A DNA stretch of 64,000 nucleotides from Cystobacter ferrugineus (GTDB lineage Bacteria > Myxococcota > Myxococcia > Myxococcales > Myxococcaceae), in contig NZ_MPIN01000006.1 in the NCBI RefSeq assembly GCF_001887355.1, positions 248,001 through 312,000 of the forward strand, given 5' to 3'. Shown one piece after another: positions 7,037 to 64,000 of the stretch. The notes under the pieces were generated by a model. That model searched no databases and was not told the DNA's origin. It saw only the letters and a list, made by a program, of their open reading frames with translations. Both the position numbers and the translations under genes were made by a program. The stretch's first letter is position 1, and each line of letters begins with the position of its first letter.

Positions 7037-7774
7037 TCAACGCTCGAGCTGTGCCGCGATGCCGTCGAGCACATAGTCCAGGCCCTTGTCGAACACGACA
7101 TCGAACGCTGGGTGGGTGGCGTCCCGAACGACCTTCGCGAGGGTCGGGAAGCGGCCGGTGGCGATCATCCGCTGGAGATAGCCCCACGAGGCTGACTGCC
7201 ACTGCGTCTTGTCCATGCCGCTCTCGCGTTCGGCGCGCAGCTCGCTCTCCTCGCTCCGGATGGCGCCAATCACGTAGGCGTGGACGGTGCCGACGGCTTG
7301 GAGGACGGCGTCGATGTCCTCGAAGCCCGGACTGTCGCTCAACGCGGCGAGCGAGGCCTCCAGGTGCGCGAGGGCGTTGGGGCCCAGATGGGGACGGCCG
7401 CCCAACAGCTCGACGAACCACTTGTGCACCCTGGCCGCCCGCCGGATGCGGTGGGCCATGGACCGGAGGGCCTCGCGCCAGTCGCCGTGGAGCGGCCCCT
7501 CGGACGCCATCTCCCCGTACACGGCATCCACCATGAGCTCCAGCAGCTCCTCCTTGGTGGACAGGTAGCCGTAGAGCCGCATCGGTCCGGCATCCAGCGC
7601 GGCCCCGACCTTACGCAACGACACCGAGGCGAGCCCTTCCGCGTCGGCGAGCGCGATGGCGGCACGCACGATCCGCTCCCTGCTGAGCGGTCCGGGCGAG
7701 GGACGACTGGCGGGCTCCGGACGCTCCCAGACGAGCGTCGCGTCCGTCGCGCGCGGTTTCTGTCGTGTGGTCAT
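7037..7774 (-). CDS. TetR-family regulator (TetR_C-type ligand domain)
   Basis: A protein of about 245 residues beginning MTTRQKPRATDATLVW. The HTH runs through PLSRERIVRAAIALADAEG, VSLRKVGAALDAGPMRLYGY and STKEELLELMVD. The C-terminal domain has the lengths and helices of the tetracycline-repressor-like class. Two ATG codons (7774, and 7795 seven codons upstream) are both possible; neither has a strong Shine-Dalgarno. It is divergent from the FAD monooxygenase, with two tandem operators between them, so it very likely represses the monooxygenase in the absence of an aromatic or drug-like ligand. Confidence 0.88.
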   Translation of the reverse strand: MTTRQKPRATDATLVWERPEPASRPSPGPLSRERIVRAAIALADAEGLASVSLRKVGAALDAGPMRLYGYLSTKEELLELMVDAVYGEMASEGPLHGDWREALRSMAHRIRRAARVHKWFVELLGGRPHLGPNALAHLEASLAALSDSPGFEDIDAVLQAVGTVHAYVIGAIRSEESELRAERESGMDKTQWQSASWGYLQRMIATGRFPTLAKVVRDATHPAFDVVFDKGLDYVLDGIAAQLER

Positions 7775-7822
7775 GAAGCGCAGTCTTGCCTTCATCGAAG
7801 CGAGGTTGACAACCCCAGGGTC

Positions 7823-7856
7823 TCGATACAGTGTATCGAAAAATACAGTGTATCGA
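7823..7856. promoter_or_regulatory. tandem 17-bp TetR operators before the FAD monooxygenase gene
   Basis: A perfect palindrome TCGATACAGTGTATCGA (7823-7839) is followed immediately by a second copy at 7840-7856 that keeps ATACAGTGTATCGA and matches at 14 of 17 positions. The two dyad centres are 17 bp apart. ATACAnTGTAT-type dyads are common TetR-family sites. The array ends 11 bp before the monooxygenase ATG and lies about 50 bp before the divergent TetR start. Confidence 0.7.
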
Positions 7857-7867
7857 AGAGAGAATCC

Positions 7868-9451
7868 ATGGAGACGAATTCGACGTCGGTGCTCGTGGTC
7901 GGGGGGGGTCTGGTCGGCCTGTCCGCCGCCCTGTTCCTGTCTTGGAGAGGTGTGCCCACCGTGCTCGTGGAGCGGCATGCCGGGAGTTCGGCCCATCCGC
8001 GCGCGATCGGCTACACCCCGCGGACGCTGGAACTGCTTCGCGCGGTCGGGCTGGGCGCGCGTGTGCCGCAAGCGCCGCCCGACTTCCGGTTGCAAAGGGC
8101 CCGGGTCGAGAGCCTCGCCGGAGAGTGGTTCGAGGAATCCTCATGGACGCAGGAGGAACACAAGGGTCCCAAGCGCGAGTACTCGCCCTGCTCCGGTGCC
8201 GCGATCGCCCAGGACCGGCTCGAACCGATCCTCCGCGACAAGGCGGTCGAACTCGGCGCCGACCTCAGGTTCCAGACCGAGCTCGTCCGCTTCGAACAGG
8301 ACGCCGACGGCGTGACCGCCTTGCTGCGCGAGCGCAACGGGCGGGAGTACACGATGCGCGCGTCCTATCTGGTCGCGGCGGACGGACACCGGAGCCCGAT
8401 TCGCGCGGCGCTGGGGATCGGCCGTGACGGGCGCGGCCATATGCGGACGCTGCGCAGCGTCCTGTTCCGAGCCCCGCTGGAGGAATACCTCCGGAAAGGG
8501 ATTACTCAGTTCGAGATCGATCAGGCCGATTTGAAGGCATTCCTGACCACCTACGGTGACGGCCGCTGGGTGCTGATGTTCTCCGACGACAAGGAACGCG
8601 ACGAGGAAACGCTGAGGGCGATGGTGCACAAGGCGATCGGCAGGTCGGACCTCGAGATCGAGCTCATCACCACCGGCCGCTGGGAATTGAGCGCGCTCAT
8701 CGCGGACAGGTTCGCGTCGAATCGAGTGTTTCTCGCGGGAGATGCCGCGCACACCCTGCCGCCCAGCCGCGGCGGTTTCGGGGCGAACACCGGCATCGAG
8801 GATGCGCACAACCTCGCGTGGAAGCTCGCCGCGGTCCTCTCGGGCACGTCAGCACCCCGCTTGCTTGAAACCTACGACGCCGAACGGCGACCGATCGCGT
8901 GGCTCAGACACCAGCAGATCTTCGTCCGGAACGACTACAAGGCGGACGCGAACGGGACCGCCGCGGACGCGCCGATCATCGACGATGACGCCATGGAGTT
9001 TGGTCAGCTCTACAGATCGACCGCGGTGCTCGGCGCGGGCGACGACCTCCCTCCCGCCTCGCGGCCCGACACGTGGGCCGGCCAGCCCGGGACGCGCGCC
9101 CCGCACCTGTGGGTGACCCAGGGCGGCGAGCGGAAGTCGACGCTGGACCTGTTTCAGCGCTCCTGGGTGCTGCTCACCGAGGACGAGCGGTGGTTGCCCG
9201 CCGCGGCGAAAGCCAGCGAGCGGCTCGCCATCGAACTCGAATGCCCGCGCATCGGCCTCGACGTGAAGCCCTCCGACCCGGACGCGTTCCGGATGGCCTT
9301 CGGCCTGAAGCCGGGGGGAGCCTCGCTGATCCGCCCGGATGGCTACGTGGCCTGGCGCTCGCTCGATCTGCCAGCGGATCCGCTTTCCGCGCTCACCGAC
9401 GCGCTCGGGCAGGTGTCGGCGGCGGCCGCGCTCCCCCACGTCAAGGGTTGA
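7868..9451 (+). CDS. FAD-dependent aromatic-type monooxygenase (class A flavoprotein hydroxylase)
   Basis: A 527-residue enzyme. The N-terminal dinucleotide fold reads VLVVGGGLVGLSAALFL (about residues 8-24). A DG motif lies in LVAADGHRSPIRAALG, and the FAD ribityl/GD motif RVFLAGDAAHTLPPSRGG is near residue 290. The C-terminal ~140 residues form the thioredoxin-like domain usual in PgaE/RdmE/MhpA-like hydroxylases. The expected reaction is NADPH- and O2-dependent hydroxylation of an aromatic or polyketide-type substrate, or inactivation of a drug. Regulation by the adjacent TetR through tandem operators fits inducible detoxification. Substrate is unknown. Confidence 0.88.
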   Translation: METNSTSVLVVGGGLVGLSAALFLSWRGVPTVLVERHAGSSAHPRAIGYTPRTLELLRAVGLGARVPQAPPDFRLQRARVESLAGEWFEESSWTQEEHKGPKREYSPCSGAAIAQDRLEPILRDKAVELGADLRFQTELVRFEQDADGVTALLRERNGREYTMRASYLVAADGHRSPIRAALGIGRDGRGHMRTLRSVLFRAPLEEYLRKGITQFEIDQADLKAFLTTYGDGRWVLMFSDDKERDEETLRAMVHKAIGRSDLEIELITTGRWELSALIADRFASNRVFLAGDAAHTLPPSRGGFGANTGIEDAHNLAWKLAAVLSGTSAPRLLETYDAERRPIAWLRHQQIFVRNDYKADANGTAADAPIIDDDAMEFGQLYRSTAVLGAGDDLPPASRPDTWAGQPGTRAPHLWVTQGGERKSTLDLFQRSWVLLTEDERWLPAAAKASERLAIELECPRIGLDVKPSDPDAFRMAFGLKPGGASLIRPDGYVAWRSLDLPADPLSALTDALGQVSAAAALPHVKG

Positions 9452-9490
9452 CCTGGGCGGAGCACCACGCCCGAACCCGGCTCGGGACAC

Positions 9491-11611
9491 TCACCGCGCG
9501 GGCGTCGAGGTCGCACGGGGCGCCTCGCCCGGCCTGGGTGGTGCGACGTCGAGAGCCCAGCAGTAGAAGCTGAGCTCGTCGACGTCTTGCTCGACGAGCG
9601 CCGTCAGTGTGGTGCCGCCGCCGTGTCCCGAGTCCCGGAGCGGCAGCAGGAAATAGGGTCCGCCCCGCGCGCCTTCCGCCTGAAGCCTGGCGACCATCTT
9701 GAGCGGATCGTGCGGCGGCGCGACCCGGTCGTTCAGCGCCGACACGAAGGTCATCACGGGATAGCGGCGATCGGCTCGGACGTTGTGATAGGGCGAATAC
9801 CCGGCGAGATACGCGCCCTCGACGGGATCCTCGGGCGAGCCGTATTCGACGGTCGCCGAGCTCAGGTGGCCGAACTTCGGAAAGCGCAGCATGTCGAGGG
9901 TGGGCGCGCGGCAGTAGACGGCGCCGAAGGCCTCGGGCGCTTGCATGGCGGTGACGGCGACGAGCAAACCGCCGTTGCTGTTGCCGCGCGAGGCGAGCCT
10001 GGAGGGAGTCGTGTAGCCCGCCGAGACGAGCCAACGTGCCGCCGCGATGTAGTCGTCGAAGGCGTTCTGCCGCCGCGTCTTGAGCGCCGCCTCGTGCCAG
10101 CCGCGGCCGTATTCACCGCCACCTCGCACGTTGGCGAAGGCGAGCACACCGCCCAGCTTCAGCCAGGCGGCGTTGAGCGCCGAGAAGCGTGGCTCCATCG
10201 AGATGTTGAAGCCCCCGTAGCCACTCAGACGCACGGGCTGGCGCCCGTCGCGAGGCAGATCCTTCCGGTGGATGATGAACATCGACACCCGCGTACCATC
10301 GAGCGATTCGTACCAGACCTGGTCCGTCACGTATTCGGAGGCGTCGAGCCCGACGTCGGGGACGTGATACGGCGACAGGCGATCCGCCGCGTAGTCATAC
10401 CGATAGACCGACGGGGCCTGCACGTACGACATGAAGCTCACCCACACCTCGTCGCCGCTCCAGGCGCCGCTGATGCCGCTGACGATGCCCTCCCCCTCGT
10501 TGCGGTTCACGGAGCCGAGTGCTGGCAGCACCAGGTCACGGAGGTAGGTGCCGTCCTCGGCGTGGATGCGCACGCGATGCGACGCCGCATGCGAGTAGAC
10601 GGCGTAGAACCGGCCGCCGACGCCGGCAACCGTCTGCAGCGTGTCCGCGCTCTCGGGGATGAGCGTCCGCCACTCCGTCGGCGCCGCCAGCGACGCGATG
10701 CAGAGGCGACCACGCGGCGCGTCGAGGTCGGTCTGGACGAGCAGCGAATCCCCGATCACCTGCACCTGGTTGAGAGACCGCATGACGGGCGCCACCGGCA
10801 CGAGCGCGTCATCGGCGAGGCGCAGGAGGTAGACGACGTTGGCGTGCACATAGTCCCACTTGTAGAGCACGGCGAAGCGGCGGCACTCGCTGACCTTGAC
10901 GGAGCACCAGTACTCTTTCTCCTGGTCGTCGCCGAAGATCCGGCGGGCTGGCACGTCCGACCCGAGCCGGTGCTCGTAGATGGCATTCCAGTGCGACTCG
11001 TCGCCCGCGGGCACCTCGCCCGGTTCAGGACACGCCGCGTAGAAGAACCCCGATGAGTCGGGCCGCCAGGCCACCGACGTGTGGCTCGTCCCTCGGGGGC
11101 GATCGGGAAGCAGTTGCCCTGTCTCGACGTCGAGCACGTGGATCACCGCGGCATGGGTCGCCCCCACGGCCTTCCCGAACGCGACCCGCGTACCATCGGG
11201 TGACGGCACGGCGAAGACCAGGGCCTCGTTGCTCGCCCATGTGTTGGGGTCGAGCACCGTCTCGAGCGGCGCGCCCTTGCCGCGCCGGAGCATGAACTCG
11301 AGCTTGTCGTCACTGGCATCCGCCTGCCAGAGGAACTCGCGTCCGTGCGGCCCGGCGGGAATCGGCGGGGAGCGCCGCGCATAGCGCGTGGAGCGAGCGA
11401 CCGCGGCCCGCAGCTCCTCGCGCCCCGGCACCGCGCGCAGCACCGCATGGGTGACGGCTTCCTGCGCCGCGATCCACGCCTGGGTCTCCGCGGCGTCGAG
11501 CCGCTCCAGCCAGGCGTAAGGATCGTCGAACCGCCTGCCATGCAGGGTGTAGCCGCTCTCCGGATCGCGCCGCGTCGTGGGAAATTCCAGACTCTGGTTC
11601 GGGTTCTTCAT
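9491..11611 (-). CDS. prolyl oligopeptidase family serine peptidase (S9A)
   Basis: A 706-residue enzyme with AGGAGG 8-9 nt before the ATG. The N-terminal DPYAWLERLDAAETQAWI opening and the following beta-propeller (about residues 80-430) are typical of S9A oligopeptidases. The catalytic domain holds LSGYGGFNISMEP, FANVRGGGEYGRGWHEA, the nucleophile in GNSNGG (Ser545), the Asp in SALNDRVAP, and the His in RDSGHGGG. No signal peptide is seen, so a cytoplasmic enzyme cleaving short peptides after Pro (or a related specificity) is likely. It converges with the monooxygenase gene and seems to stand alone. Confidence 0.92.
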   Translation of the reverse strand: MKNPNQSLEFPTTRRDPESGYTLHGRRFDDPYAWLERLDAAETQAWIAAQEAVTHAVLRAVPGREELRAAVARSTRYARRSPPIPAGPHGREFLWQADASDDKLEFMLRRGKGAPLETVLDPNTWASNEALVFAVPSPDGTRVAFGKAVGATHAAVIHVLDVETGQLLPDRPRGTSHTSVAWRPDSSGFFYAACPEPGEVPAGDESHWNAIYEHRLGSDVPARRIFGDDQEKEYWCSVKVSECRRFAVLYKWDYVHANVVYLLRLADDALVPVAPVMRSLNQVQVIGDSLLVQTDLDAPRGRLCIASLAAPTEWRTLIPESADTLQTVAGVGGRFYAVYSHAASHRVRIHAEDGTYLRDLVLPALGSVNRNEGEGIVSGISGAWSGDEVWVSFMSYVQAPSVYRYDYAADRLSPYHVPDVGLDASEYVTDQVWYESLDGTRVSMFIIHRKDLPRDGRQPVRLSGYGGFNISMEPRFSALNAAWLKLGGVLAFANVRGGGEYGRGWHEAALKTRRQNAFDDYIAAARWLVSAGYTTPSRLASRGNSNGGLLVAVTAMQAPEAFGAVYCRAPTLDMLRFPKFGHLSSATVEYGSPEDPVEGAYLAGYSPYHNVRADRRYPVMTFVSALNDRVAPPHDPLKMVARLQAEGARGGPYFLLPLRDSGHGGGTTLTALVEQDVDELSFYCWALDVAPPRPGEAPRATSTPAR

Positions 11612-44820: not shown

Positions 44821-46062
44821 GTGAACCCTCGACACCTCAGCCGGGCAGAGTTCCTCTCCCTCACGAGCCTGCTGGCGGGCTCCTCCCTCCTGCCACGCCC
44901 GGCGGATGCCGCCCCCAAGTCCTCCGGGAAGACCGCCCCGAGTCCCGCCGCTCCGAAGCCCGGGGCGACGGGGCAGGTGCCCCTGCAAGGCGAGCGCTTG
45001 CGGCGAAGCTGCCGCGCCGCGTTCACGCTGAGCTCCTCCGCGGACGCGGGCACCGAGTTGATCCGCCTGGGCGAGTGGATTCGCGACCAGGGCATCCAGC
45101 CCGATGTGTACGGCGACGGCGAGTTCATCCAGTCCTTCGAGCGCCGCGTGGCGGAGCGGCTCGGCTTCGAGGACGGGTGCTTCATGCCCACCGGCACCAT
45201 GGGCCAGCTCATCGCGCTGCGCATCTACGCGGACGAGGGGAGGACGCGGACCGTGGGCCTCCATCCGTCCTCCCACCACGTGCTGCACGAGGACGACAGC
45301 CACACCGTGCTCCACGGGCTCCAGCCCGTGCTGCTCTGCCCCTGGTCCCGGCCCGTGCTCGCCAGTGACGTGCGCGACGCACGCGAGCGCCTGGGCGTGG
45401 TCAGTGTCGAGATGCCCGTGCGCTGGCTGGGCGGACAGTTGCCCACGTGGGAGCAGCTCGAGGAGCTCAAGCGCACGTGCCGCGAGCGCGGGGTGAAGCT
45501 GCACATGGACGGCGCCCGGTTGTGGGAGAGCCAGCCCTACTATGGGCGCTCGTACGCGGACATCTGCCGGGGCTTCGACTCCGTGTACGTCTCCTTCTAC
45601 AAGATGGTGGGCGCCCTGGGCGGGGCCATGGTGGTGGGCGGCAAGGACTTCATCCGCACGGTCCGGATGTGGAGGCACCGGCACGGGGGCAACATCTTCC
45701 AGTTGCTGCCCTACGCCGCCTCCGCGGCCATGCGCCTGGACGACGCCCTGAGCCGCATTCCCTCCTACGTCCAGCGAGCGAAGTCCATCTCCGAGGCCCT
45801 CGCCGCCGACTCCCGCCTCGTGGTGCTCCCCAGGCCCGTGCAGACCAACCTGTTCCGGGTCTTCCTGCGCGGGGATCCCGCCGCGTTCTCACGCCAGAGG
45901 GATCGCATCGCGCGCGAGGACTCCATCTGGCTGGCGCACGGCTTCAGCCAGACACGCGTCCCGGGAATCGTCGAGGCGGAATTGCAGGTGGGTGAAGGGC
46001 TCGCGGGCCTCGATGACGCGCAGGCCGTGCGAGCCTTCCTCCGGCTTCTCGAGCCCGTCTGA
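44821..46062 (+). CDS. secreted PLP-dependent lyase of the threonine-aldolase fold
   Basis: A 413-residue protein with a GTG start (GGAG 9 nt upstream). Its first 30 residues look like a secretion signal, HLSRAEFLSLTSLLAGSSLL, with an SRAEFL core that resembles a Tat motif having lost one Arg. The enzyme core has DVYGDGEFIQSFERRVAERL, FMPTGTMGQLIALRIYADEG, HHVLHEDDSHTVLHGLQPVL, LHMDGARLWES and SFYKMVGALGG, where the Lys is the likely PLP anchor. This is the beta-eliminating lyase/L-threonine-aldolase-like family. An exported PLP enzyme is unusual. Activity not shown. Confidence 0.82.
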   Translation: MNPRHLSRAEFLSLTSLLAGSSLLPRPADAAPKSSGKTAPSPAAPKPGATGQVPLQGERLRRSCRAAFTLSSSADAGTELIRLGEWIRDQGIQPDVYGDGEFIQSFERRVAERLGFEDGCFMPTGTMGQLIALRIYADEGRTRTVGLHPSSHHVLHEDDSHTVLHGLQPVLLCPWSRPVLASDVRDARERLGVVSVEMPVRWLGGQLPTWEQLEELKRTCRERGVKLHMDGARLWESQPYYGRSYADICRGFDSVYVSFYKMVGALGGAMVVGGKDFIRTVRMWRHRHGGNIFQLLPYAASAAMRLDDALSRIPSYVQRAKSISEALAADSRLVVLPRPVQTNLFRVFLRGDPAAFSRQRDRIAREDSIWLAHGFSQTRVPGIVEAELQVGEGLAGLDDAQAVRAFLRLLEPV

Positions 46063-46103
46063 AACACTTCCGGAACCGTGCACCGGCCCGGGGCCGGACT
46101 CCT

Positions 46104-47156
46104 TCAGCTCCCGTGCTCGACGTCCGCCCAACGCGGCCGGTGCAGGATCCGCACGGCCATGCATGAGATGTTCGCTCCCGTCCCGGTCCCGAGCAGCAGG
46201 AGGTTGTCCCCCTCCTTCAGCTCGCCGGAGACGAGGAGGTGGTCCAACGAGAGCACCTGGTCGCAGGCACCAACGTGTCCGATGGTGCGGCCGTACTCCC
46301 AGGTCAACCTGGACATGGGCAGTCCCAGCGGGACTGCGGCGCGTTCCCGCACCCGCTCCTCGGACCAGTTGACGAAGGCGATCCGGGTGATCTCGGACAT
46401 GTCCAGGCTCGCCTCCCGGAGGGTCTTGTCGACGACCTCCAGCATGGTTCTGGTGACCGTCGTCACCGGCTCCCGCGGGTCCATGCCCGTGGTCGATTGC
46501 CACTGCTCCTTGGCCTTCGCGAGGTCGAGCTTCGCGCCCAGGGTCACCTCCGGCGGGAACAGGGGGACCGATCCCCGGTGCCTGTCCTCATACTGAGGCA
46601 GTGTCACCGAGTTGATCGACTCCAGGCGTGCGAACCCGGGCTTCCTGGTGAACAGCAGCGCGCACGCACCGTCGCCGAGCGGGGCATGCGGGCTGGACCG
46701 CCAGCGGTCGATCATCTGGGTGCTGTAGTTGTCCGCCGAGGTGATCAAGGAGGCCGCGTGCTCCGGCGCCGCCATCAGGTGAGCCGCGGCCAGTTCGCAG
46801 GCGCAGAACATGCCCATGCAGGCCTGCCGGATCTCCGCCGCGGTCGCCTGTCCGGAACCGGTGTGCCGCTGGACGTAGTACTGGGGACACCAGCCGAGGG
46901 GTCCCTGGAACCACGTGCTGACGTACAGGACGAGGCTCAGCGCCGCCGGATCCTGGCCAGCGCGAAGCAGCGCCTGCCGGCTCGCCCGGAGCGCCATCTC
47001 CGGCGCGGGGAGATCGCCCGCCATCGTGACGCTCTTGATGCCGTACCGCCTGGCCTCGAACTCGCCTACAAATCCCTGGGCCACGGCCCACTCGGCCGGC
47101 ACCCGCTCGGGGAGATAGGCCCCGGTCGCACTGATGAACACGCCTGGTGTCTTCAT
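46104..47156 (-). CDS. ketosynthase-III-like acyltransferase (DpsC/CerJ-type active site)
   Basis: A 350-residue thiolase-fold protein. The nucleophile Cys113 lies in RQACMGMFCACELAA. The canonical KASIII HQANxRI motif is absent (FVNWSEERV), and the Asn of the Cys-His-Asn triad is replaced: the region reads TIGHVGACDQVLSLD, with His294 and Asp299. A Cys(Ser)-His-x4-Asp arrangement is that reported, from memory, for the KASIII-like acyltransferases DpsC and CerJ, which transfer acyl groups instead of condensing. It overlaps the AMP-ligase gene by 4 nt. A likely role is loading a starter acyl unit, or acylating/off-loading the polyketide. The role is inferred. Confidence 0.82.
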   Translation of the reverse strand: MKTPGVFISATGAYLPERVPAEWAVAQGFVGEFEARRYGIKSVTMAGDLPAPEMALRASRQALLRAGQDPAALSLVLYVSTWFQGPLGWCPQYYVQRHTGSGQATAAEIRQACMGMFCACELAAAHLMAAPEHAASLITSADNYSTQMIDRWRSSPHAPLGDGACALLFTRKPGFARLESINSVTLPQYEDRHRGSVPLFPPEVTLGAKLDLAKAKEQWQSTTGMDPREPVTTVTRTMLEVVDKTLREASLDMSEITRIAFVNWSEERVRERAAVPLGLPMSRLTWEYGRTIGHVGACDQVLSLDHLLVSGELKEGDNLLLLGTGTGANISCMAVRILHRPRWADVEHGS

Positions 47157-48703
47157 GAGATGTCCCTGTCCGCCCAGTACGGTGCGCGCAGCTCCCGCTT
47201 GAGCACCTTGCCGGTGGGCGCCTTCGGCAACTCGGCGATGAACTCCACCGAACGTGGTTTCTGGTAGGAGGCCAGGTGCCCGCGGGCGGCGTCGATGATG
47301 TCCTCCGCGGTCGCCGTCCGGCCCGGTTTGAGCACCACGAAGGCCTTCACAGACTCGCCCCACTCCTCGTCGGGCACTCCGATCACCGCGCATTCCAGCA
47401 CGGCCGGATGTCTGCCAATCGCCTCCTCCACCTCGACGCTGTAGATCTTCTCTCCACCCGAGATGATCATGTCCTTGAGCCGGTCGACGATGTACAGGTA
47501 GCGCTCCTCGTCCCAGGTGGCCACGTCGCCGGTGCGCATCCACCCATTGCGGAAGGTGGCCGCGGTCAGGTCCGGCCGCCGGAAGTAGCCGAGCATGTTG
47601 GCCGCGCCGCGGACCACGATCTCGCCGGGAGTCTTTCCATCGCGCGGCACGTCATGGCCGTCCGCGTCGACGACCCGGATCCGAGTGCCGAAGCCCTCGC
47701 GGCCACACGAGCGCAGCCGGTGCGGGTGGACCCCCCGCAACGCGTTGCGATGGTCCTCCTGGGACAGGAACGACATGGTCGCCCCTTCGGTCTGCCCGTA
47801 GCCCTGGATCAACCCGCACGGGAAGGACTCCGCCACCGCGCGCACGATGGCGCTGGGCATCGGGCCACCGCCGTACTGGATGTTGCGCAGACTCGACAGG
47901 TCGTAGGAGCCGAACCCCGGCACCGCCAGCATCCAGTTGAGCATCGTGGTGATGCCAAGGAACGCCGAGACCCGCTCCTGCTCGATGACCTCCAGCGCCC
48001 GCCGGGCCTCGAAGTTCATCAGCACCACGGGACAGCCGTGGGCCAGGTAGTTCATCGAGAGCACCACGGGGATGTGGAACATCTGCCCGGTGAGCAGGTA
48101 GACGTCGGAAGGGACGATCCGCTCCGCCACCGTCTGGTTGAGCATCCCGGCGGCCACACTGCGATGGGTGTGCACCACGCCCTTGGCCGCTCCGGTCGTG
48201 CCGCCGGTGTAGAGGATGAAGCAGGGGTCGGTCTCCTGGACCTGTTCGCTCCAGGGCGGCTCGGTATCCGGCGCCGAGGCAACGAGTTCCTCATAGCTGC
48301 CATCTCCGGACATTCCACAGTGGAGCAGGCGCACCAGGTCGACCGCCCGGCCCAGCTCCTCGGCCACGTGCCGGAACTCGGCCGAGGCGACCAGGACGGC
48401 GGGTTCGGCGTTGGCGACGAGGGTGCGCAGCGCCTCGGTGGACAGCCGCCAGTTCAACGGCAGCAGCACCAGGCCCGCGCGGCCCACCGCGAAGTAGAGC
48501 TCCTGGTACTCGATGCTGTTGCGGCTGAGCACGGCCACCCGGTCACCGGAGCGCAGACCGAGAGCCCGCAGGCCGTTGGCCAGTTTGCGCACCCGGGCGT
48601 CCAAGGTGGCCCAGTCGATGCGCCGCTGGTGGGTGATGTCGACCAGCGCGGTTCGCCGGGGAGTGAGGGCCGCCCACTTGGCGGGGATCAGTCCGAGGTT
48701 CAT
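47153..48703 (-). CDS. acyl-activating AMP-ligase (acyl-CoA/acyl-acid synthetase)
   Basis: A 516-residue ANL enzyme. ATP-binding A3 is FILYTGGTTGAAKGVVH; A5 is LIQGYGQTEGATMSFL; A7 is WMRTGDVATWD; A8 is VDRLKDMIISGGEKIYSVEV; and A10 is PTGKVLKREL with the catalytic Lys. It probably adenylates a carboxylic acid and transfers it to CoA (or an ACP). It overlaps both neighbours by 4 nt: the SnoaL-like gene before it and the KASIII-like gene after it. Thus the activated acyl group is probably the donor for that acyltransferase. Confidence 0.92.
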   Translation of the reverse strand: MNLGLIPAKWAALTPRRTALVDITHQRRIDWATLDARVRKLANGLRALGLRSGDRVAVLSRNSIEYQELYFAVGRAGLVLLPLNWRLSTEALRTLVANAEPAVLVASAEFRHVAEELGRAVDLVRLLHCGMSGDGSYEELVASAPDTEPPWSEQVQETDPCFILYTGGTTGAAKGVVHTHRSVAAGMLNQTVAERIVPSDVYLLTGQMFHIPVVLSMNYLAHGCPVVLMNFEARRALEVIEQERVSAFLGITTMLNWMLAVPGFGSYDLSSLRNIQYGGGPMPSAIVRAVAESFPCGLIQGYGQTEGATMSFLSQEDHRNALRGVHPHRLRSCGREGFGTRIRVVDADGHDVPRDGKTPGEIVVRGAANMLGYFRRPDLTAATFRNGWMRTGDVATWDEERYLYIVDRLKDMIISGGEKIYSVEVEEAIGRHPAVLECAVIGVPDEEWGESVKAFVVLKPGRTATAEDIIDAARGHLASYQKPRSVEFIAELPKAPTGKVLKRELRAPYWADRDIS

Positions 48704-49128
48704 CGAGGGCGCCGGCCGTCACTGGGGAGGTCGAGCTCGATGTGCCGGGAGCGCAATCGCCAGGACTCCCCGGCCTGGACCACCTCGTCGGTATAAGTCC
48801 CTGTGGACAGGACATCGAGACGCCCGTCTCGCACCGAGATCAGCGTCAGGTACGACCGCGCGGTGGCCGCGCCGGGACCGGAGAGGTCAACGACCAGGTT
48901 CGTGCACACGTGCCGCCTGCGGTCGTCCTGCGCCGCGGCGGAGTCCCTCATCAGACGCATGATCTCCGCGTGTCCCCGGAACGGTCCGACCAGATCGCCG
49001 CCAGTGACTCGCAGGGTCAGCGACGCGTCTGGGGTGAAACACGCGATGAGCGCGTCCCAGTCGCGGGTGTCATAGGCCCACGCGTACCTCGCCACCAGGT
49101 CGGCGATGGACTCGCGCACGGACATCAT
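48700..49128 (-). CDS. SnoaL-like / NTF2-fold protein of the polyketide cluster
   Basis: A 142-residue protein starting MMSVRESIADLVARYAWAY. An in-frame ATG 87 nt upstream lies in the promoter and is unlikely. WDALIACFTPDASLTLRVTG, a LVGPFRGHAEIMRLMRD helix and the C-terminal SWRLRSRHIELDLP match the SnoaL_4 type, which includes cyclases, dehydratases and isomerases in natural-product pathways and many uncharacterised proteins. It heads the three-gene operon with the AMP-ligase and KASIII-like genes, overlapping the former by 4 nt. Confidence 0.82.
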   Translation of the reverse strand: MMSVRESIADLVARYAWAYDTRDWDALIACFTPDASLTLRVTGGDLVGPFRGHAEIMRLMRDSAAAQDDRRRHVCTNLVVDLSGPGAATARSYLTLISVRDGRLDVLSTGTYTDEVVQAGESWRLRSRHIELDLPSDGRRPR

Positions 49129-49146
49129 TTCTTGCTGATGCCTTTG

Positions 49147-49160
49147 GACAGGGTCCTGTC
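49147..49160. promoter_or_regulatory. candidate operator before the SnoaL/ligase/KASIII operon
   Basis: A 14-bp inverted repeat, GACAGG-gt-CCTGTC, sits 18 nt upstream of the SnoaL-like start. Other short dyads (GAGAT-tcac-ATCTC near 49211-49224) lie further upstream. The site may bind a regulator or form a leader hairpin. No regulator gene is in this part of the cluster. Confidence 0.35.
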
Positions 49161-49313
49161 TCACTTTTCGCTCCGGATGAGGCAGCCGGTATCTCTGTCG
49201 AGAGTAGAGATTCACATCTCGAGAGAGAACACTCGAAAGCGCATGAAAAGACTCACCCGGAAGAGGGAGTGAGCGTTCACCCTCCTGGCATCATCGGAAG
49301 AGTGCCATCGCGG

Positions 49314-49335
49314 GAGCCCGCCGCGGGGCGGGCTC
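49314..49335 (-). terminator. strong hairpin after the PKS operon
   Basis: A perfect 9-bp stem GAGCCCGCC / GGCGGGCTC with a 4-nt loop (49323-49326), 52 nt after the stop of PKS-C. A second, weaker hairpin (GAGGG-a-GTGA / TCAC-CCTC, 49263-49284) follows. There is no T-run, which is common in GC-rich genomes. It probably ends or attenuates the PKS transcript before the SnoaL/ligase/KASIII operon. Confidence 0.55.
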
Positions 49336-49387
49336 AATCATCGCGAGGAAGATCGAAGCAACATCTGGGCAACGTGCCTTCTTCGAT

Positions 49388-51637
<2,250 letters not shown>

Positions 51638-51646
51638 GACGGGTCC

Positions 51647-60684
<9,038 letters not shown>

Positions 60685-60688
<4 letters not shown>

Positions 60689-63600
60689 GATGCGTCCTCC
60701 CAGCCCGCCAGTGCGTCATCCACCATTTCGAGCAACTTCCCCTCGGACAGCTCGGCGAGCTGGTGCACCTCCTGCTCCACGGGAGCAGGCCGGCTCTTCT
60801 CCTTGCGAGGCTTCTCCACGGGCGCCGCCGGCGCCGGCTGCTCCTGCACGGGCGCCAGGCCGAGCTGCTCCAGCAGGTAGGCCGCCAGGGCCATCAGCGT
60901 GGAGCGCGCCCACAGCAGCGTCACCGACAGCTTCAGGTCCAGCGCGGCCTCGATGCGGTTGCGCAGCTCCAGGCTCATCAGCGAGTCGAGCCCCAAGCCA
61001 CGGAACGGTTCATGCCGCCCGATGCGCGCGGGGTCCACCCGGAGCACCTGGGCGAGCCGCTCGCGCAGGTAGCCCTCCATCATCGCCACGCGTCCGTTCG
61101 GCGCGCAGCGCTTGAGGTCCAACAGCAGGCTGGAGCGTCCCCGCGCGCCCTCGGCGTGAGTCTCCTGCGCCAGCTCCTCCCAGACGTGCTGCGACGCCGC
61201 GCTCGGGAAGAACTGCAACCACTGGCGCAGGTCCAGCAGCACCGCGCCCGCGTTCGCCGCGCCCTCCGCGAGCAGGCGCTCGAGCAGCGCATCGCCCTGC
61301 TTCGTCGTGAAGCTCGCCATGCCCTGGAACGCGAGGCGCTCGCCCCGGTTGGCCCGCGCCGCGGCCAGGCCCACCTCGGAGAAGGGCCCCCAGTTCACGC
61401 TCAGGGCCGGCAGGCCCTGCTGGCGCCGGTGGTGGGCCAGCGCGTCCATGGCGGCGTTGGCCGCCGCGTAGTTGCCTTGTCCCGGCATGCCCAGCAGCGC
61501 CGACATGGAGGAGTAGAGGACGAAGAAGTCCAGCGGCTCGTCGCGGGTGAGCGCGTGCAGGTTCCAGGCGCCCTGGATCTTCGGCGTCAGCACCTCGCGG
61601 AAGCGCGGGAGCTCCTGTTGCTCGAGGATGCCGTCATCGAGCACGCCCGCGCAGTGCAACACGCCCCGGAGCGTGGGCAGCTCCCCGTGCGTGCGCGCCA
61701 CCACCTCGGCGAGCCCCCGGGCGTCCGCCACGTTCACGCGCGCCACCTCCACACGCGCTCCCGTGGCCCGCATGGCCTCCAGCTTCTCGGCGACGGCCTC
61801 GGACGGAGCGTTGCGACCCAACAGCACCAGGTGACGCGCGCCATGCCCGACGAGCCACTGGGCCGCCGAGAGGCCCAGGCCCCCGAGTCCTCCAGTGATG
61901 AGGTACGAGCCGTCCGCGCGCACCCGGAAGCCCGGCTTGGGCGGGACGACGCGCAGATGAGGGTCCTGCATCGTGACGACGAGCTTGCCCACGTGCTGGC
62001 CCCGCGCCATCTCCCGGAAGGCCTCGGACACCTGCGACACGGGGAAGGAGCGGTGCTGCACGGGCCGGAGCATGCCGGACGTCATGCGCTCCATCACCTC
62101 GTGCAACAGGCGTGCGCACAGCGCGGGCCGTCGATCGCGCAGGCCGCCCAGGTCGATGGCGACGTACATGAGCCGGCGGCTGAACTGGGACAGCTCCAGC
62201 GAGCGTCCGGCGTGGATGTCCCGGTTGCCCACCTCGAGGAAGCGGCCGTCCGGAGCCAGCACCTCCATGCTCCGGGTGATGGCGTCGCCGGAGAGGGAGT
62301 TGAGCACCACGTCCACGCCCTCCCCGTCCGTCACGCGCATCACCTCGTCGGCGAAGGCGAGCGTGTGCGAGTCCATCACGTGGGTGATGCCCATGCCGCG
62401 CAACAGCTCACGCTTCTCGGGCGTGCCCGCGGTGGCGAACACCTCCGCGCCCAGCGCCTGGGCGATCTGCACCGCCGCGAGCCCGAGCCCGCCCGCGGCC
62501 GAGTGGATGAGGATGCGCTCGCCCGCGCCCAGGTGCGCCAGGTGGTGCAACGCGTACCAGGCCGTCATGAAGACGCTGGGGATGGAGCTGGCCTCCTCCA
62601 CGCCCATGTCCTCGGGCCGGCGCGCCACGAAGCGCGCGTCCACGACGACGTGCGAGGCCATGGCCGAGCGCGCGAAGGCCACCACCGGGTCGCCCACCGC
62701 GAGCCCCTCCACGCCCTCGCCCACCGCCACCACCCGGCCCGCGCAGTCCAGTCCGAGCGGCAGCCCCTCCAGGGGCACACCCGAGCGGCCCCCCTCCACG
62801 TCCTTCATCACGTACAGGCCCATGGTCTTCATCACGTCGATGAAGTTGAGGGCCGAGGCCTCGACGGCGATCTCCACCTCTCCACGTCCGGGGCGGCGCC
62901 GCTCGGCCATACGCACCACCACGCCGCCGAAGGAGGCCGCCGGCGCCGTCTCCACCTGGAAGCTCTTGCCAGCCGCGGGCAGCAGGGGCTCGTTGAGCAG
63001 ATCCTTGGCCGCCGAGCGCCGCACGAGCCGCGCCACCATGCGCGTTCCCCCGCGCAGGGCCACCTGCTCGTCATCCGCGCGCGCCGACAGCTCGCGGCCC
63101 AGCGACTCCACGTCCACCTGGGACGAGGAGGGATCCAGGTCCACGCACGTGCAGCGCAGCTCCGGGTGCTCCTGCCCCACCGTGCGGCCCAGGCCCCAGA
63201 GCGCCGCCTGGAGCGCACCCGACGCGGGCGAGCCCAGCACCGGCCACGCCCCGCGCGTCACCAGCCACAGGCGCGGCGGATCCCTCCACCCCCAGCGCAG
63301 CATCTCCTGCACGAGCCGGAGCGCACCGCCGCAGGCGCGCATCGCCGACTCGAGCGCCTGCTCACCCGGCGCGTCCGGCCCGGCCGCGTCCAGGCCCCAC
63401 AGGTACGCCACGCCCGCGCAGGAGTTCTCCTCGGGGAAGCACTGGCGCAGCACGGCGCTCAGGTCCTCGCGCGAGCCCGGGGCCACGGTGTAGTGCCGGG
63501 CGTGGATGCGGCGCAGGCCCGTGCCCGCCTCCACGCGGATGCACGCCGCGCCCCACGACTCCAGCATCTGCGCGAGCGCCTCGCCCACGCCGGAGGCATC

Positions 63601-64000
63601 CTGGAAGATGAGCCACGGCATGTCGGCGGAGCCCGGCTCGAACACGGCGGGCAGGCCCGCGCGGCGCCAGGCCACCTCGAAGAGCGAGCGATCCTGCTCG
63701 GCGCGCGCCTTGCCATAGCGCGTGGGCAGGGCCGCGAGCTCCAGGCCCTCCACCACGGCGAGCGCGGCGCCCTGCCCGTCCACCAGCACCACGTCGCCCT
63801 CCAGGGTGGAGCCCTTGCGCCAGGACTCACGGGGAGCGATGCGCGCGTGGGCCCACTGGGGCGAGCCCCGGCGCAGCAGCTCGAAGTGGCGCAGGCGCAC
63901 GGGCACGAAGGTCGTCTCGTCCGAGGGCAGGCACTCGAGCAACACCTGGAGCGCCGCGTCGAGCACGCCGGGGTGCAGGGCACCCGTGGCCCCGAGCGCG
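60685..64000 (-). CDS. PKS-A: type I polyketide synthase, C-terminal part (DH-ER-KR-ACP), incomplete at the window edge
   Basis: The frame runs off the right edge, so the start is unseen. The edge lies in a DH domain, at its HPGVLDAALQ motif. An ER (about 61950-62890) holds ALNFIDVMKTMG, LPLGLDCAGRVVAVG and the NADPH loop HSAAGGLGLAAVQIA. A KR (about 61330-61915) has ITGGLGGLGLSAA, GVLDDG (B-type) and YAAANAAMDAL. The ACP holds GLGLDSLMSLELRN near 60985. A Pro/Lys linker and a helical docking segment (QLAELSEGKLLEMVDDALA) end the protein. It is a fully reducing module giving a saturated unit. Its TGA overlaps the GTG of PKS-B. Confidence 0.93.

What the first reader, a model, noticed from the sequence alone, without database searches (positions are those of the whole stretch)
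46104..49128. Acyl-activation plus acyltransferase-type KASIII operon at the end of the PKS
SnoaL-like, AMP-ligase and KASIII-like genes overlap by 4 nt each. The KASIII-like enzyme has Cys113 with His294 and Asp299 (H-x4-D), and lacks the HQAN and GN motifs of condensing enzymes. DpsC and CerJ share this arrangement. The pair may activate a carboxylic acid and load or esterify it onto the polyketide, which could also supply the missing release step.
Basis: partly seen in the sequence, partly recalled or inferred. Interest (0 to 1): 0.7.

Follow-up and report, generated by a model that had tools for sequence, protein, structure and literature searches.

The report
Mobile three-gene acyl-transfer cassette beside PKS
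Three overlapping genes that look able to activate an acid and hand it to another molecule do sit next to a polyketide gene cluster, but related bacteria carry the same three genes as a free-standing unit at other places in the chromosome, so they are a travelling cassette and not the polyketide's own release machinery.

Summary
In detail: SnoaL-like, AMP-ligase and KASIII-like genes (46104-49128, minus strand) overlap by 4 nt each, and the KASIII-like enzyme has Cys113/His294/Asp299; its best solved relative is the acyltransferase ChlB3. The enzyme-class reading is supported; the link to the polyketide synthase (PKS) is not. The trio occurs in 7 of 145 order genomes and adjoins this PKS only here; the six other copies have no PKS homologue nearby. 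Two sister genomes keep the PKS junction without the trio, and one sister's trio site is empty here. Between genera the trio is about 90% identical at fourfold sites, gyrB 71-73%: a horizontally moving cassette with its own leader. Ligase and SnoaL resemble a pair in actinomycete catabolic loci that lacks the KASIII; the KASIII resembles one in a pyrrole-carboxylate-type cluster. Best reading: a plug-in that activates a carboxylic acid as CoA thioester and transfers the acyl group to a host acceptor. Substrate and acceptor are unknown; condensation is not excluded. The supposed missing release step cannot rest on it, since PKS relatives lack it.

The parts
46104..47156 (-). KASIII-like acyltransferase (350 aa), ChlB3/CerJ/DpsC subfamily; Cys113, His294, Asp299
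   Evidence: Pfam ACP_syn_III_C and ACP_syn_III; PDB best hit ChlB3 7eqi E 1.8e-104; positions
47153..48703 (-). AMP-forming acyl-CoA ligase (516 aa)
   Evidence: Pfam AMP-binding 6.2e-81 and AMP-binding_C; motifs YTGGTTGAAKG, GYGQTEG, PTGKVLK readable in the translation
48700..49128 (-). SnoaL-like (NTF2-fold) protein, 142 aa
   Evidence: Pfam SnoaL_4 2.5e-25; Y19, D20, D45, H73, N77, Y112, H129, D133 among the residues invariant in 18 sequences from two phyla
49129..49302 (-). Leader carried by the cassette in G000, G048, G074 and G073 (partly in G045); a related leader precedes an isochorismatase-like hydrolase gene in other genomes
49251..49274 (-). Hairpin plus T-rich stretch inside the leader; terminator-like or operator (weak: 2 such sites found in the scanned stretch, 1.1 expected by chance)
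46058..49394 (.). Segment of this genome that replaces about 0.37 kb of the sister genomes G073 and G074 between the flanking lyase gene and the terminal PKS gene
49388..51637 (-). Context, not part of the cassette: terminal PKS protein, ketosynthase plus truncated acyltransferase, no ACP, no thioesterase
   Evidence: orthologues
44836..46062 (+). Context: beta-eliminating lyase-like gene, the other flank of the junction; conserved in G073 and G074

Best explanation
A three-gene, roughly 3.2-kb mobile cassette (leader, SnoaL-like, acid:CoA ligase, ChlB3-type KASIII-like acyltransferase) has come to lie at the 3' end of an unrelated PKS locus. Shown: the genes, their coupling, conservation, horizontal transfer between genera, lack of linkage to this PKS, and reciprocal empty sites. 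Inferred: the ligase turns a carboxylic acid (probably aromatic or alicyclic) into its CoA thioester; the SnoaL partner, usually next to this ligase type, acts on the acid or its CoA ester (dehydration, isomerisation or hydration); the KASIII takes the acyl group onto Cys113, activated by His294/Asp299, and passes it to a host thiol, hydroxyl or amine. No ACP travels with the cassette, so the acceptor must be a host carrier protein, CoA derivative or metabolite.
For: Trio at different sites in 7 genomes, no PKS homologue near the 6 other copies. Junction without the trio in G073 and G074 and an empty site in G000 where G074 has its trio. Fourfold-site identity and tree conflict with gyrB. Purifying selection: mean dN/dS 0.20 ligase, 0.32 SnoaL (without G048), 0.40 KASIII. 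SnoaL within 1.5 kb of the ligase in 11 of 13 actinomycete loci with a 67-72% ligase, 0 of 10 with a 36-41% ligase. KASIII next to prolyl-carrier dehydrogenase-like and adenylation genes in Streptomyces locus L007. ChlB3 triad and transfer mechanism (PMC9573744, passages).
Against: No assay. Substrate and acceptor unknown. DpsC, a relative with H-x4-D, is described as condensing, so C-C bond formation is possible. KASIII dN/dS reaches 0.81 in one pair, which could mean relaxed or diversifying selection. G000, G073 and G074 cassettes form one clade (97/98), so inside this genus a single acquisition followed by relocation fits as well as repeated transfer. No recombinase was found that would explain movement.
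Confidence: 0.62

Rival explanations
1. The operon is a functional late step of this PKS (acyl tailoring or chain release); adjacency reflects recruitment in this lineage.
For: Same strand, 259 nt downstream of the PKS, enzyme class able to move acyl groups; CerJ and CalA3 show that KS-fold proteins can make C-O and C-N bonds (PMC10006239, passages).
Against: Adjacent in 1 of 7 cassette genomes; absent from the PKS junction of the sisters G073 and G074; 4 of 10 PKS genomes have no intact trio. The cassette brings its own leader.
Confidence: 0.12
2. A miniature condensing pathway: the ligase makes a starter acyl-CoA, the KASIII condenses it with malonyl-ACP or another acyl thioester, and the SnoaL-like protein cyclises the product, in the manner of ligase plus KASIII signal-molecule pathways (PqsA/PqsD, recalled).
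For: Ligase, KASIII and a cyclase-family protein could suffice for such a product; DpsC shares H-x4-D and is described as condensing; His193 is conserved.
Against: The closest characterised relative, ChlB3, moves an acyl group to an ACP; the FabH C-H-N triad is replaced; the SnoaL is kin to partners of catabolic ligases.
Confidence: 0.17
3. A catabolic or detoxifying unit: it activates an environmental acid and the KASIII only shuttles or hydrolyses the thioester.
For: Ligase and SnoaL kin lie in actinomycete degradation-type loci with monooxygenases, acyl-CoA dehydrogenases and thiolases; ChlB3 hydrolyses free thioesters (abstract of PMC9573744).
Against: No beta-oxidation or ring-cleavage genes travel with the cassette; the KASIII relatives seen here stand in biosynthetic loci.
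Confidence: 0.15

Closest known systems
ChlB3 (chlorothricin; PDB 7eqi)
   Same: Same subfamily by sequence (E 1.8e-104; 42-44% identity); same triad spacing (Cys113, His296, Asp301 in ChlB3, PMC9573744)
   Different: ChlB3 takes 6-methylsalicyl from a PKS to an ACP; here no ACP and no 6MSA synthase travel with it; pocket positions differ (Phe266 to Trp264, Ile270 to Arg268, Met326 to Thr324, read by hand from the alignment)
KASIII-like genes of actinomycete loci L003-L009
   Same: Closest relatives found outside the cassette, 54-57% identity
   Different: In L007, the one examined, the gene stands with prolyl-carrier dehydrogenase-like, adenylation, halogenase-like and carrier-protein-like genes
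CerJ (PDB 3s3l) and DpsC (4xs7)
   Same: Same fold family; H-x4-D seen for DpsC, stated for CerJ in PMC9573744
   Different: E 2.6e-43 and 8.7e-55, more distant; DpsC uses Ser and is described as condensing
AfcA/AfcL of AFC-BC11 biosynthesis (PMC12186527, passages)
   Same: AMP ligase and KASIII-like Cys/His/Asp acyltransferase in one pathway; AfcL superimposed on ChlB3 by its authors
   Different: Large cluster with carrier protein AfcK and A-domain AfcQ; not a mobile trio
SnoaL plus ligase pair of actinomycete catabolic-type loci (G466, G568 and others; ligase alone on Rhodococcus oxybenzonivorans plasmid pRB98)
   Same: Ligase 66-72%, SnoaL 43-52%, SnoaL just upstream in most
   Different: No KASIII found next to it

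Membership tests
ChlB3/CerJ-type KASIII-like acyltransferase | KASIII (thiolase-fold) domain, nearest to ChlB3/NatS/DpsC/CerJ rather than FabH | tested here: met
   (the model is poor, mean pLDDT 60.9; the sequence result carries the claim)
ChlB3/CerJ-type KASIII-like acyltransferase | Cys-His-Asp triad with H-x4-D | tested here: met
   residues named in PMC9573744
ChlB3/CerJ-type KASIII-like acyltransferase | Transfers acyl groups to S, O or N acceptors without decarboxylative condensation | not testable with these tools
   needs enzyme assay
FabH-type condensing KASIII | C-H-N triad (HQAN and GN motifs; recalled) | tested here: not met
   NWSEE and GHVGACD at those places; NCBIfam fabH 56.6 bits against cut-off 292.1
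AMP-forming acyl-CoA ligase | AMP-binding and C-terminal domains with the P-loop, A5 and A10 lysine motifs | tested here: met
   motifs read (motif names recalled)
AMP-forming acyl-CoA ligase | Substrate class | not testable with these tools
   best solved relatives are named fatty-acyl- and feruloyl-CoA synthetases, not decisive
Tailoring or release genes of this PKS cluster | Conserved linkage with the PKS in relatives | tested here: not met
Transposon or insertion sequence | Own transposase or recombinase inside the moved unit | tested here: not met
   the conserved unit holds only the three genes and the leader

The most novel reading that the evidence does not exclude
A free-ranging 'plug-in' acylation pathway: natural assembly of a catabolic SnoaL-ligase pair with an antibiotic-type acyltransferase, plus a host-type promoter leader, spreading between myxobacterial genera at unrelated sites and acylating whatever host product or carrier its KASIII accepts.
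Probability: 0.33. Interest if true: 0.75.

Novelty: new variant of a known kind. Interest (0 to 1): 0.5.

Why it matters
Cluster boundaries are usually drawn by adjacency. Here adjacency misleads: a neighbour that looks like the missing last step is an arrival that sister genomes keep elsewhere. The cassette itself is a small, transferable acid-activating and acyl-transferring unit that could be tested as a tailoring tool, and it suggests how catabolic and biosynthetic parts can be joined into a mobile pathway.

Tried and rejected
Considered and dropped: (a) leader as a dispersed mobile repeat: the other copies that could be read lie upstream of an isochorismatase-like hydrolase gene (L132, L133, L134, L135, L137, L139) or another gene (L138), so it reads as a promoter/5' region; L136 is a short match without that gene (the hydrolase name is from reading the sequence, no family search was run). 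(b) Small ORF upstream of SnoaL (37 codons in G048): the frame differs or is broken in the other copies, G000 included, so no peptide claim. (c) Structure of the SnoaL protein from a single sequence: mean pLDDT 45.6, unusable. (d) Viral contigs searched with the ligase: none. (e) Ligase substrate from solved relatives: not decisive.

Own errors: gyrB and PKS genes were first read on wrong strands and corrected; only values are used. First Python attempts to read files failed. In one search one KASIII start (L045) was misread; onwards uses the right one, a GTG.

Rows dropped before counts: one search hid PKS matches under 50% identity and all matches under 38%; one search repeats the test at E 1e-8 without that filter. 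SnoaL of G048 was left out of the dN/dS and identity tables (extraction failed) but is. PKS-C identities use 6 of the 10 orthologues (those with a CSSS motif).

Literature: no report of this trio was found with the searches in an open-licence library; subscription journals are mostly not held.

Full report
WHAT IS THERE. The window is G000:C6:248001-312000 of a 12.05-Mb draft genome. On the minus strand, after the last PKS gene (49388-51637), lie a SnoaL-like gene (48700-49128), an AMP-forming ligase (47153-48703) and a KASIII-like gene (46104-47156), each overlapping the next by 4 nt.

ENZYME CLASS. The KASIII-like protein's best solved relative is ChlB3 (E 1.8e-104), followed by 9z38, 7vyu (NatS), DpsC and CerJ; FabH proteins follow far behind. 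A fold search with a modest model (mean pLDDT 60.9) again puts ChlB3, DpsC, NatS and CerJ ahead of FabH. PMC9573744 (abstract and passages read) gives ChlB3's triad as Cys113, His296, Asp301 and a ping-pong transfer of 6-methylsalicyl to an ACP, and says CerJ shares the site. The same passages say DpsC uses Ser-His-His and condenses, yet DpsC also shows H-x4-D in the alignment, so the motif narrows but does not settle the reaction. In 7 of 7 cassette copies and in the 7 actinomycete relatives aligned the triad is intact.

THE PKS LINK FAILS. In a search of 145 genomes of the order, 7 hold a close KASIII relative (73-100% identity, the window's genome included); the next best full-length match is 35% and the others listed are at 32% or less, apart from one 39-residue fragment at 82% in G046 (the list was cut by the tool). 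The ligase search of 195 phylum genomes finds the same 7 and no other at E 1e-140. The terminal PKS gene has full-length relatives at 74-95% identity in 9 further genomes, so 10 of 96 family genomes with this one; partial matches of 64-67% occur in G098 and G099. Six genomes have both trio and PKS, but only here are they neighbours: in G074, G075 and G048 they lie 2.2, 3.1 and 4.0 Mb apart, in G073 and G045 on different contigs. In the 20-kb stretches around the six other cassettes no match to the three PKS proteins appears at E 1e-8. Neighbours tested include lectin, PETase-like, acetyltransferase, glucanase, macroglobulin and receptor genes. Only G073 and G074 share neighbours, on the left side.

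RECIPROCAL EMPTY SITES. G073 and G074 (same genus, terminal PKS gene 95% identical) have the PKS and the lyase gene separated by 361-362 bp with a small secreted-peptide-like gene; homology with this genome stops at window 46057 and resumes at 49395. Conversely, G074's cassette segment (7224-10515 of its oriented stretch) corresponds to 557 bp without cassette in this genome. The unit conserved between genomes runs from about 49275-49302 to the neighbourhood of the KASIII stop. In G046 a 260-bp remnant keeps both ends of the cassette with the middle gone.

HORIZONTAL TRANSFER. Between the trio-bearing genomes of genus g1 (G000, G073, G074) and g3 (G045, G048), fourfold-site identity is 89.5-91.4% for the ligase and 88.5-91.4% for the KASIII, against 71.0-72.7% for gyrB and 61.2-64.9% for the terminal PKS gene. 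The cassette tree (ligase plus KASIII) rejects g1 as one clade (p-AU 0.0008) and the gyrB data reject grouping G000, G073, G074 with G045 and G048 (p-AU 6e-6). G000, G073 and G074 do form one cassette clade (97/98), so in these three species one acquisition followed by relocation is as good an account as separate arrivals. Mean dN/dS is 0.20 (ligase), 0.32 (SnoaL, 6 genomes) and 0.40 (KASIII), with gyrB 0.24: all are maintained, the KASIII least strictly, up to 0.81 in one pair.

ORIGIN OF THE PARTS. A sample of 394 actinomycete genomes gave 2 with a ligase of 69-72%; 298 genomes of one order gave 13 at E 1e-150, 67-72% (the 2 included). A SnoaL relative lies within 1.5 kb in 11 of these 13 and a KASIII in 0 of 13; among 10 loci with generic ligases (36-41%) 0 have a SnoaL. 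Surroundings are catabolic in character: Baeyer-Villiger-type monooxygenase, ketosteroid-dehydrogenase-like flavoprotein, acyl-CoA dehydrogenase, thiolase, aromatic-acid transporter (most names rest on family scores below cut-off). On a Rhodococcus oxybenzonivorans plasmid a 66% ligase stands with acyl-CoA dehydrogenases and thiolases, without a SnoaL relative. Eighteen SnoaL sequences from both phyla share Y19, D20, D45, H73, N77, Y112, H129 and D133 among 20 invariant residues, as expected for an enzyme. The KASIII's nearest relatives (54-57%) are in Streptomyces, Streptantibioticus and Pseudosporangium loci; in the one examined (L007) the gene stands with a prolyl-carrier dehydrogenase-like gene, an adenylation gene, a carrier-protein-like reading frame and a halogenase-like gene, by inference a pyrrole-carboxyl route. 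The cassette thus seems to join a catabolic activation pair to a biosynthetic acyl-transfer enzyme.

EXPRESSION. The leader, about 170 nt, is shared by G000, G048, G074 and G073, partly by G045, and resembles the region before an isochorismatase-like hydrolase gene in other genomes. A hairpin with a T-rich tail lies inside it (near chance expectation). A separate transcript is likely but not shown.

RELEASE STEP. The terminal PKS protein is itself an ACP-less ketosynthase with a truncated acyltransferase, retained with dN/dS 0.13-0.15 between the three sister genomes. CalA3 (PMC10006239, passages) is an ACP-less terminal module whose KS releases the chain by amidation or hydrolysis. That is a better lead for release than the cassette, though here the KTN[VI]GH histidine is Tyr in all 6 orthologues where the motif was read, of 12 loci tried, unlike CalA3's C-H-H site.

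VERDICT. Role in the PKS: not supported. The most interesting fact is the mobile, self-contained trio.

Noticed in passing
49388-51637: Terminal PKS protein: KS plus truncated AT, no ACP, and Tyr in place of the second KS histidine (KTNVGYPEA); the Tyr was seen in 6 orthologues of 12 loci tried. Possible non-extending, CalA3-like release KS.
   Followed up: partly
60685-64000 and beyond the window (to 68421 in extended coordinates): First PKS protein carries a degenerate AT-like piece (GHGVGEV) before an intact AT (GHSMGEV); upstream lies a class III CoA-transferase gene.
   Followed up: no
51647-60688: Two-module PKS protein whose second module shows no AT in the Pfam scan (KS-DH-KR-ACP).
   Followed up: no
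L127:9706-9965 (G046:C46:38705-38964): Remnant of the cassette: both ends present, about 3 kb of the middle missing.
   Followed up: partly
L052 and L053, junction after the terminal PKS gene: A small Cys-rich secreted-peptide-like gene stands where this genome has the cassette.
   Followed up: no
L094, L095, L112-L122: SnoaL-ligase pair in actinomycete catabolic-type loci, function unassigned.
   Followed up: partly
G074: Its contig length, 12,349,744 bp, equals that given for Cystobacter fuscus DSM 52655 in the abstract of PMC5658505 (search listing), so the window's genus is probably Cystobacter.
   Followed up: no
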